A DNA stretch of 64,000 nucleotides from positions 1-64,000 of the forward strand of contig JACGUK010000003.1 of assembly GCA_024256265.1 (NCBI GenBank), read 5' to 3'. This document shows, piece by piece, positions 1 to 34,922 of the stretch. Each line of letters begins with the position of its first letter. Within the stretch, counting starts at the first letter, position 1. Below the pieces are notes generated by a model. That model was not told the DNA's origin. It saw only the letters and a program-made list of their open reading frames with translations, and ran no database searches. The DNA comes from an archaeon (GTDB taxonomy: Archaea > Thermoproteota > Nitrososphaeria > Nitrososphaerales > JACAEJ01). A program made the position numbers and the translations under genes.

Positions 1-87
1 TTTCTTTCTTACCTTCTCTTAGAGGGTAAAGGATTAATTATTGAGCATTATATTTGAAATCTGCGGGGGTTCCCAAGCCAGGTTAAT

Positions 88-112
88 GCCAAGCTTGAAT
101 TAGGCGACAAGA
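88..112 (+). other. Putative tRNA intron in the D arm of tRNA-Leu
   Basis: These 25 nt separate T22 (87) from G23 (113) of the mature tRNA; the cut could slide by one G (23/24). Inside, 94-98 (CTTGA) is complementary to the anticodon loop 135-139 (TCAAG), and 100-105 (TTAGGC) to 127-132 (GCCTAA). The unspliced RNA can therefore fold into a long helix masking the anticodon, as archaeal pre-tRNAs often do. A strict bulge-helix-bulge is not obvious by eye. Confidence 0.65.
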
Positions 113-120
113 GGGGGCAG

Positions 121-132
121 TTAAAAGCCTAA
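121..132 (+). other. Putative 12-nt tRNA intron at position 30/31 of tRNA-Leu
   Basis: Removing these bases joins GCAG (117-120) to A133 and restores a perfect 5-bp anticodon stem GCAGA/TCTGC around loop CTCAAGA. Sliding the cut by one base in either direction breaks a pair, so 30/31 is the only junction allowing full pairing. The exon between this intron and the D-arm intron is only about 8 nt. Confidence 0.7.
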
Positions 133-316
133 ACTCAAGATCTGCTGGCTAAGGCCTTCGTGGGTTCGAATCCCACCCCCCGCACTTTTTACTTTCTGGA
201 ATTTTTTGAAAGGATATGATCATCAATTAAGTTAGTTTCTTAATGCTTCTTTCATTATATTAAATAGAAGACCAATATTCAAATATAAAACTTGTCAGAA
301 ATAAGAAGGATTAAAA

Positions 317-684: not shown

Positions 685-1908
685 TCATAAAACCCCTTTT
701 GCAGTCTCATCTACAATTCTTCTTATTTCATCCTTCAAAGTATCTGGAAGACCAAAGATAGTAACATCCATAAAACCTCTTACTATTAATGATCTAGCCT
801 CAGCCTCTGAAAATCCTCTAGCCATCAAGTATCTGATCTGCTCCTCAGCTATCTTACCAACAGCAGCCTCATGAGAAAGCTCAGTCCCGCTAACTTTCCC
901 AATAAGCTCTGGTATGGCATGAATAAAAGCTCTATCAGAAACTAATAGACCTCTACATTCGAGATGCGCTCTGCTATCACTATTCTCTCCTATCAATAAT
1001 CCTCTAGCATATATTTGGGCACTTTCCGAGGCTATGGCATGACTTATGACTTCTCCTTTGCTTCCAGATCCTTGAAGAACTATTTTTGCTCCTACATCGA
1101 TGTAAGAATTCCCTCCTCCATATAGAATAGAGTTAAAACTAGCTTTTGAATTGCTTCCTTTACAATATGCAACTGGGTACATTTGAAGGCTCTTCACTGG
1201 TTTTAAACATATGTAATTGTTCACGAATGTAGCATCATCCTCTATGAGCACTGCTGTCCTTGGACGAACATCAAAGTTCTGAGCCCAGTTATGAATCATA
1301 GTGAAAGTGAGCTTAGCCTCTTTTTTCAAGTAAAATTCTGTAATTCCAACATGAAGTCCTCTTTGAACATTTGGATGAACAACACAACCTGTTATTATTT
1401 GAACTTCTGAGTTAGGTTCTATTATCACCATATTATGAACATTCTGATTTAATCTATTCATCGAGATAAAGAGGCATGATTGAAGGGGAAGCGTAATTTT
1501 TTGACCTTCTAAAACTCTGATGAAATAGCCATGATCCCAGTTTAGCTCTGCTAATGCAGTATATTTGTCCATATTTGCTGGTATAAGCTTCCACCAGTAA
1601 TCTTTGAACCAATCGTGTTTTTTGAGGGCATCTTTTGTGCTCATCAACTCTATCTTCCCTTCAAAAGCCTTTTGAATACCTTGAAAAACAACTGAATGGT
1701 CTATCTGAAAGTAAGTCCCAATTCTATCCTTCTCATCAGTCCTTATCCCTACATTTAAGGACTGATTTGCTATTTCTTCTGGAAGAGATGAAACTAAGCA
1801 AGGATACCAAGGTTTAGCCTCTCTGATGAAATCTTTTATTTCTAGATCAGGACCGAAACTTGCTGGCTTATCTATAGCCTTCAATACTTCCTCTCTATCT
1901 TTAGGCAC
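685..1908 (-). CDS. sufB: Fe-S cluster assembly scaffold SufB/SufD family
   Basis: A 407-residue member of the SufBD beta-helix family, which with SufC forms the scaffold and energy unit for de novo Fe-S cluster assembly in the cytosol. The family-typical C-terminal part is visible: a His and Glu-rich stretch ending in SGTELSHEAAVGKI and a following motif around EEQIRYLMARG. Start is GTG at 1908 with GGTG just upstream. It overlaps the end of sufC by 28 nt, so the two are co-transcribed and probably translationally coupled. Archaea often carry this minimal sufCB pair. SufB and SufD cannot be separated with certainty here. Confidence 0.9.
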   Translation of the reverse strand: MPKDREEVLKAIDKPASFGPDLEIKDFIREAKPWYPCLVSSLPEEIANQSLNVGIRTDEKDRIGTYFQIDHSVVFQGIQKAFEGKIELMSTKDALKKHDWFKDYWWKLIPANMDKYTALAELNWDHGYFIRVLEGQKITLPLQSCLFISMNRLNQNVHNMVIIEPNSEVQIITGCVVHPNVQRGLHVGITEFYLKKEAKLTFTMIHNWAQNFDVRPRTAVLIEDDATFVNNYICLKPVKSLQMYPVAYCKGSNSKASFNSILYGGGNSYIDVGAKIVLQGSGSKGEVISHAIASESAQIYARGLLIGENSDSRAHLECRGLLVSDRAFIHAIPELIGKVSGTELSHEAAVGKIAEEQIRYLMARGFSEAEARSLIVRGFMDVTIFGLPDTLKDEIRRIVDETAKGVL

Positions 1909-34826: not shown

Positions 34827-34922
34827 GCCGAGGTAGCTCAGCCTGGGAGAGCATCCGACTCATTTATGAAGAGGGTGAAGCTGAAGACCGGACTGTCGCA
34901 GGTTCAAGTCCTGCCCTCGGCA
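34827..34922 (+). tRNA. tRNA-Phe (GAA) with intron at position 30/31
   Basis: Acceptor GCCGAGG (34827-34833) pairs with CCTCGGC (34915-34921); A34922 is the discriminator. D arm GCTC/GAGC and T arm GCAGG-TTCAAGT-CCTGC are perfect. The anticodon stem needs TCCGG/CCGGA, but TCCG (34854-34857) and G34880 are separated by 22 nt. Loop CTGAAGA has anticodon GAA at 34883-34885. Without 34858-34879 the tRNA is 74 nt. CCA is not encoded. Confidence 0.93.
34858..34879 (+). other. Putative 22-nt tRNA intron at position 30/31 of tRNA-Phe
   Basis: Removing 34858-34879 restores a 5-bp stem TCCGG/CCGGA. Shifting the cut by one base either way destroys the 31-39 pair, so the position is fixed as 30/31, the same as the second intron of tRNA-Leu at 121-132. 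Confidence 0.8.

What the first reader, a model, noticed from the sequence alone, without database searches (positions are those of the whole stretch)
63..184. tRNA-Leu(CAA) split by two non-canonical introns leaving an 8-nt middle exon
Folding requires joining three pieces: 63-87, 113-120 and 133-184. The middle exon GGGGGCAG supplies both the D-stem 3' strand and most of the anticodon stem 5' strand. Introns at about 22/23 and 30/31 in one gene, with such a small exon, are rare and known chiefly from Thermoproteales. The unspliced transcript can instead fold so that the anticodon is masked by intron sequence (94-98 with 135-139).
Basis: partly seen in the sequence, partly recalled or inferred. 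Interest (0 to 1): 0.7.

Follow-up and report, generated by a model that had tools for sequence, protein, structure and literature searches.

The report
Archaeal leucine tRNA with two introns
A leucine transfer-RNA gene of an uncultured archaeon is interrupted by two tiny introns that leave a nine-letter middle piece; this is a known kind of gene, but its relatives show a graded series from no introns up to what look like four in the same gene.

Summary
Window 63-184 (+) encodes a tRNA-Leu(CAA) in three pieces. Intron 2 (30/31) has a full bulge-helix-bulge (BHB) motif, intron 1 a relaxed one. All 7 genomes held of the closest family carry the gene. Exons hardly vary, introns vary freely. No intronless copy was seen in 14 genomes. 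Relatives encode alpha and beta splicing-endonuclease genes (one beta copy broken) and RtcB. The lineage is Nitrososphaerales, not Thermoproteales. The gene is a new member of a known kind. The anticodon-masking fold is possible but weak: lost in 4 of 15 orthologues and 4.6 kcal/mol above the minimum at 37 C. More interesting are relatives: orthologues with one, three and four introns (published maximum seen: three), and a tRNA-Leu(GAG) whose intron lies inside the anticodon.

The parts
63..86 (+). Exon 1 of tRNA-Leu(CAA): acceptor 5' strand, D-stem 5' strand, D-loop up to position 21
   Evidence: Best of 3740 deletion placements; ARAGORN on spliced sequence
87..111 (+). Intron 1, 25 nt, position 21/22, relaxed BHB: central pairs 82-108, 83-107, 84-106; 5' bulge A85 A86|T87; inner helix 88-90 with 103-105
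   Evidence: pair counts on 15 orthologues
112..120 (+). Exon 2, 9 nt (AGGGGGCAG), positions 22-30: D-stem 3' strand plus most of the anticodon-stem 5' strand
   Evidence: GGGGGCAG in 15 of 15 aligned orthologues, the leading A in 14 of 15 (C in G018)
121..132 (+). Intron 2, 12 nt, position 30/31, BHB: central helix 115-118 with 127-130, 5' bulge A119 G120|T121, 3' bulge A131 A132|A133
   Evidence: 4 of 4 central pairs in 15 of 15 orthologues; present in the unconstrained minimum-energy fold at 37 C
133..184 (+). Exon 3: anticodon loop (anticodon CAA at 136-138), anticodon-stem 3' strand, variable arm, T-arm, acceptor 3' strand, A73
27..41 (+). Upstream element TAAAGGATTAATTAT, probable promoter (BRE/TATA-like; function inferred)
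   Evidence: A closely similar element upstream in 8 of 8 sequences compared (window plus seven family genomes), read by eye
186..190 (+). T-run just after the gene, possible terminator (inferred); no such run right behind the gene in the relatives printed
94..139 (+). Possible competing fold: 94-98 with 135-139 and 100-105 with 127-132, covering the anticodon
   Evidence: 11 of 12 pairs here; not kept in G004-G007; reached by 78 of 2000 shuffles

Best explanation
This is the functional tRNA-Leu(CAA) gene of a Nitrososphaerales archaeon. It is transcribed as one precursor. An (alpha-beta)2 tRNA-splicing endonuclease cuts both introns at BHB motifs: intron 2 at 30/31 through a full 4-bp central helix with two 3-nt bulges, and intron 1 at 21/22 through a relaxed motif. 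RtcB joins the three exons into an 85-nt tRNA. Intron 2 is probably cut first, because its motif is part of the lowest-energy precursor fold at 37 and 55 C and that of intron 1 is not; this order is inferred. Shown: spliced cloverleaf, motif pairing across orthologues, exon constraint, enzyme genes in relatives. Inferred: transcription, cleavage, order, use in decoding UUG.
For: Best deletion placement, 79 of 85 to intronless genes. ARAGORN Leu(caa) with both introns removed; nothing with none or only intron 2 removed, a false Phe(aaa) with only intron 1 removed. Full-length orthologue in 7 of 7 family genomes. In the aligned D-stem to anticodon-stem region of 15 orthologues the variable columns, gaps counted, are 6 of 37 exon, 21 of 25 intron 1, 14 of 17 intron 2. 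BHB pairs form in 98.7% of 159 cells against 24-44% when slid. In G012 exon base 28 and its intron partner both change, C-G to U-A (sequence, read by eye). Family genomes have two EndA matches over the cut-off, 7 of 7, though the second one in G004 is partial with a stop; the 7 alpha copies keep Y/H/K and a K-P-K loop, which in the one aligned (G002) lies over chain residues 44-46, K-P-R, of 3p1z. RtcB in 7 of 7. No uninterrupted Leu(CAA) anticodon arm in 14 genomes at up to 1 mismatch.
Against: No RNA data. The intron 1 central helix has three pairs plus a G-A mismatch; forcing it costs about 5 kcal/mol in the full precursor and about 6 after intron 2 is removed, at 37 C. G011 keeps 3 of 5 intron 1 pairs. 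Shuffle control (a) for the BHB pairs is weak: 22, 30 and 30 of 500 on three measures, 437 and 500 of 500 on two, because most pairs never vary. The placement score separates the best cut from others by one base. The window's own genome is not held, so its EndA, RtcB and other tRNA genes could not be checked.
Confidence: 0.93

Rival explanations
1. The precursor uses a competing fold in which intron 1 (94-105) pairs with intron 2 and the anticodon loop (127-139). The fold hides the anticodon and delays charging or times splicing, so the introns have a regulatory role.
For: 11 of 12 pairs in the window; 9 or more of 12 in 11 of 15 orthologues; 77.7% of 179 cells paired against 14.5-49.7% when slid, and 3 cells with both sides changed; equal in energy to the best fold at 70 C.
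Against: 3-6 of 12 pairs in G004-G007; p<0.05 against shuffled intron 1 in 7 of 17, and not in the diverged G011, G018, G409, G419; shuffles reach its five measures 38-131 of 500 times and the +1 slide has a higher covariation score; 4.6 kcal/mol above the minimum at 37 C.
Confidence: 0.15
2. The gene is a decayed tRNA copy and the segments are random insertions.
For: ARAGORN and Rfam miss it unspliced.
Against: Exons almost invariant while introns vary; gene kept in 7 of 7 family genomes; no intact copy in 14 genomes.
Confidence: 0.03
3. The true intron 1 boundary is that of the reader (87|88 and 112|113), giving U22 and an A13-U22 pair.
For: This spliced form also folds as tRNA-Leu(caa), with a fourth D-stem pair.
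Against: 78 rather than 79 of 85; A22 in 16 of 16 references; the 86|87 cut puts the 5' cleavage between bulge nucleotides 2 and 3, as in intron 2.
Confidence: 0.1

Closest known systems
Multi-intron tRNA genes of Thermoproteales (e.g. Pyrobaculum islandicum tRNA-Pro(UGG), P. calidifontis tRNA-Glu(UUC); PMC4090602 section 4, PMC4390854 passages)
   Same: Several short BHB introns at non-canonical positions in one tRNA gene. In tRNA-Pro(UGG) the positions 25/26 and 37/38 leave a middle exon of about 12 nt (computed from the positions).
   Different: Different order (Nitrososphaerales); different tRNA and positions (21/22 with 30/31).
Non-canonical tRNA introns of Thaumarchaeota as modelled in tRNAscan-SE 2.0 (PMC8450103 passages)
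   Same: Broadly the same group of archaea; the passages describe genes with two or three introns so close that one must be removed before the next motif can form.
   Different: This gene and its Methylarchaceae-like family are not named in the passages seen.
Split and tri-split tRNAs (Nanoarchaeum, Caldivirga; PMC4090602 section 4)
   Same: tRNA assembled from two or three pieces at BHB-like junctions, also at 30/31.
   Different: Here all pieces are contiguous in one 122-nt stretch, so splicing is in cis.

Membership tests
Archaeal BHB tRNA introns | Exons join to a full cloverleaf tRNA | tested here: met
   ARAGORN tRNA-Leu(caa), 85 bases; 79 of 85 to an intronless gene
Archaeal BHB tRNA introns | 4-bp central helix with two 3-nt bulges at the splice sites, intron 2 | tested here: met
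   4 of 4 central pairs in 15 of 15; bulges read by eye
Archaeal BHB tRNA introns | Same motif for intron 1 | tested here: inconclusive
   Three central pairs plus a G-A mismatch; relaxed HBh'-like form; not in the free minimum-energy fold
Archaeal BHB tRNA introns | (alpha-beta)2 endonuclease with crenarchaeal-type loop, able to cut relaxed motifs | tested here: met
   By sequence and in relatives only: two EndA matches over cut-off in 7 of 7, the second in G004 partial with a stop; K-P-K and Y/H/K in 7 of 7 alpha copies, beta without the His in the 6 read (residue roles recalled); loop residues per PMC12397907 passages. Assembly itself not testable.
Archaeal BHB tRNA introns | RtcB-type ligase | tested here: met
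   7 of 7 relatives
Archaeal BHB tRNA introns | Precursor is cut and ligated in the cell | not testable with these tools
   No RNA data
Thermoproteales multi-intron tRNA genes | Host in order Thermoproteales | tested here: not met
   Nearest relatives are MAGs titled Nitrososphaeria, Nitrososphaerales and Candidatus Methylarchaceae; Methylarchaceae is in Nitrososphaerales
Split (trans-spliced) tRNA | Pieces in separate transcription units | tested here: not met
   All pieces colinear within 122 nt in the window and in one full-length match in 7 of 7 relatives

The most novel reading that the evidence does not exclude
tRNA-Leu(CAA) in this part of Nitrososphaeria is a visible ladder of intron gain in one gene: intronless outgroups, then one (30/31), two (21/22, 30/31), three and four introns (9/10, 21/22, 30/31, 59/60). 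The four-intron genes of G019 and G041 give a mature tRNA identical to the three-intron gene of G032. Four introns would exceed the maximum of three given in the reviews seen and would need ordered splicing, with intron pairing in some members helping to set the order. The direction of change is inferred; no tree was built.
Probability: 0.6. Interest if true: 0.6.

Novelty: new member of a known kind. Interest (0 to 1): 0.42.

Why it matters
The window gene by itself adds one well-supported case of a multi-intron tRNA outside Thermoproteales, and one that ARAGORN and Rfam miss. Its relatives matter more. They offer one gene with 0 to 4 introns among related genomes, which makes intron gain, relaxed-motif cutting and splicing order testable on matched substrates that yield nearly the same tRNA. 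They also suggest that annotation tools that expect at most three introns, or an unbroken anticodon, could mis-annotate this lineage.

Tried and rejected
The anticodon-masking fold was kept only as a weak rival. Pseudogene and trans-split readings were rejected. Synteny with the neighbouring gene at 685-1908 (SufB/D-like by recall, no family search run) led nowhere: a T-arm motif scan showed no matching tRNA beside it in the close relatives. RNAalifold on A2 returned the four BHB2 central pairs but mostly exon-exon pairs besides, and none of the intron 1 pairs. Rfam at relaxed threshold gave chance matches plus a tmRNA-model fragment over the T-arm.

Paper searches: 'four introns' with tRNA gene and archaea; 'noncanonical introns' with tRNA genes and archaea, from 2012; 'multiple introns' with splicing endonuclease; 'within the anticodon'; Thaumarchaeota with metagenome. 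In their listings (titles and starts of abstracts, capped lists) I saw no report of a four-intron tRNA or of an intron that splits the anticodon. What I saw of papers: section 4 plus passages of PMC4090602; passages only of PMC4033280, PMC8450103, PMC4390854, PMC12397907. The original Sugahara 2008 and Marck and Grosjean 2003 papers were not read.

Full report
What is there. The sequence at 63-184 reads GCGGGGG...CCCCCGCA with a T-arm at 160-176. ARAGORN and Rfam at gathering score report only two other tRNA genes in the window. With neither removed, or with only intron 2 removed, it finds nothing; with only intron 1 removed it makes a false Phe(aaa) call.

Boundaries. In a search of 398 genomes of the phylum of G001, 201 matched; only the best got loci, 29 of them new. 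One search printed 27 of the 29. By eye 19 carry an intronless tRNA-Leu(CAA) and 2 (L148, L158) one intron near 28-31; the other six printed are UAA genes. Sixteen of exactly 85 nt served as references; as best matches to the window gene they are not a random sample. All 3740 placements of a 25-nt deletion followed by a 12-nt one were scored. The best is 87-111 plus 121-132 (79 of 85). The lengths 25 and 12 were taken as given. Two further facts favour 86|87: all 16 references have A22, and the cut then lies between bulge nucleotides 2 and 3, like 120|121 and 132|133. So the introns are most likely at 21/22 and 30/31 and the middle exon is 9 nt.

Who it is. No genome is held for the window. 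The protein at 688-1908 (-) is 88, 87, 83, 78 and 78% identical to those of G001 to G005: two MAGs titled Nitrososphaeria (G001, G003), one Nitrososphaerales (G002), one Candidatus Methylarchaceae (G004) and one archaeon H03B2 (G005). Methylarchaceae is placed in Nitrososphaerales. The tRNA gene matches over its full length at 96% (G001), 93% (G002), 93% (G003), 83% (G004) and 88% (G005). All 7 genomes held of the family of G001 have a full-length match. G007 shows it at the ends of two contigs, perhaps one gene.

Conservation. In an alignment of 15 orthologues from the D-stem to the anticodon stem, variable columns, gaps counted, are 6 of 37 in exons, 21 of 25 in intron 1 and 14 of 17 in intron 2; for the window plus seven family genomes 3 of 37, 18 of 25 and 12 of 17. 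BHB pairs form in 98.7% of 159 cells against 24-44% when partners are slid. The shuffle control is weak: 22, 30 and 30 of 500 on three measures, 437 and 500 of 500 on two, since most pairs never vary. One intron 1 pair (columns 18-33) changes on both sides, C-G to U-A, in three sequences. By sequence, intron 1 keeps 5 of 5 scored pairs in 8 of 15, 4 of 5 in 6 (some through gaps) and 3 of 5 in G011; intron 2 keeps 4 of 4 central pairs in 15 of 15. In G012, left out of that alignment because it lacks intron 1, exon base 28 and its intron partner both change (by eye).

Machinery. Family genomes have two EndA matches over the cut-off, 7 of 7; the second in G004 is partial with a stop inside, and a third hit there is below the cut-off. 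The alpha copy of G002 matches solved splicing-endonuclease chains and aligns its K-P-K with residues 44-46, K-P-R, of 3p1z chain B. That is the numbering of the A. pernix loop residues K44, P45 and R46 in PMC12397907 (passages); that 3p1z is the A. pernix enzyme is recalled. All 7 alpha copies have K-P-K and the Y/H/K residues; the 6 beta copies read lack the histidine (residue roles recalled). RtcB is found in 7 of 7. None of this could be checked in the window's own genome.

Folding. With short flanks the precursor folds better than all but 1 of 200 shuffles (z -2.28). In the free minimum at 37 C (-47.8 kcal/mol) the BHB of intron 2 is present. With intron 2 removed, the BHB of intron 1 is still not favoured (-40.1 against -46.2). 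At 70 C the masking helix equals the minimum (-18.6), with the BHB of intron 2 at -17.7. The masking helix pairs 9 or more of 12 in 11 of 15 orthologues but 3-6 of 12 in G004-G007. Against shuffled intron 1 it is better at p<0.05 in 7 of 17. It may be an inherited complementarity. A regulatory role is not shown.

No other copy. A pattern for the uninterrupted anticodon arm, one mismatch allowed, found 9 sites in 14 genomes. Six are the intron 2/exon 3 junction of this gene and three are tRNA-Leu(UAA); none is an intronless Leu(CAA). UUG could still be read by the UAA tRNA, so the gene need not be essential (general knowledge).

The series. Among 18 genes read (the window, G001-G007, eight more of the order, two from the class search), one has one intron (G012), eleven have two (window, G001-G007, G018, G409, G419), four have three (G011, G013, G027, G032) and two have four (G019, G041). 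The readings of G409 and G419 are by eye. G021 of the same order looks intronless (by eye). Most genomes of the order sample (400, 27 with a match at E 1e-10) and class sample (400, 16 with a match at E 1e-12) were not read for this gene. Spliced in silico, the eight order genes all give tRNA-Leu(caa), and G019, G041 and G032 give the same 85 letters (boundaries were set by my patterns; G001-G007 were not run there). The 9/10 intron (GGGG TT|A ... CCCC AA|C) and the 59/60 intron (TTCA AA|A ... TGAA AC|T) have BHB forms by eye. Reviews state up to three introns per archaeal tRNA gene (passages of PMC4033280; PMC8450103; PMC4390854).

Place among known things. Positions 22/23, 30/31 and 59/60 are on the published, non-exhaustive list of PMC4090602 (section 4); 21/22, 9/10 and 34/35 are not in that sentence. 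The window gene is a new member of a known kind. The four-intron relatives are the more notable observation.

Noticed in passing
L064:1475-1634 (G019) and L067, reverse strand (G041): tRNA-Leu(CAA) with apparently four introns (9/10, 21/22, 30/31, 59/60); spliced product identical to that of three-intron G032.
   Followed up: partly
L032/L175, L040/L174, L038/L172, L041/L177, L059, L173: tRNA-Leu(GAG) with an intron inside the anticodon (34/35) in 6 of 7 family genomes (not seen in G004); the loop CTGAGGC after splicing equals that of intronless Leu(GAG) in L114-L118, by eye. Five of the six also have an insertion in the variable arm.
   Followed up: partly
L178, L181, L187 (G027, G032, G013): tRNA-Leu(GAG) read by eye as having introns at 30/31 and 37/38 around a 7-nt exon that holds the whole anticodon.
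   Followed up: no
L027-L030, L055, L056: tRNA-Leu(UAA) in 6 of 7 family genomes (not seen in G005) has an intron at the same D-loop site 21/22; G004, G006 and G007 show a further short insertion near 37/38 (by eye).
   Followed up: partly
window 34827-34922: ARAGORN calls tRNA-His(atg), but the sequence has an anticodon loop CTCAT and an insertion after it; more likely an elongator Met or Ile2 (CAU) tRNA with an intron (by eye).
   Followed up: no
G007 contigs C67 and C70: The tRNA-Leu(CAA) gene lies at the very end of two contigs: one gene at an assembly break, or a real duplicate.
   Followed up: no
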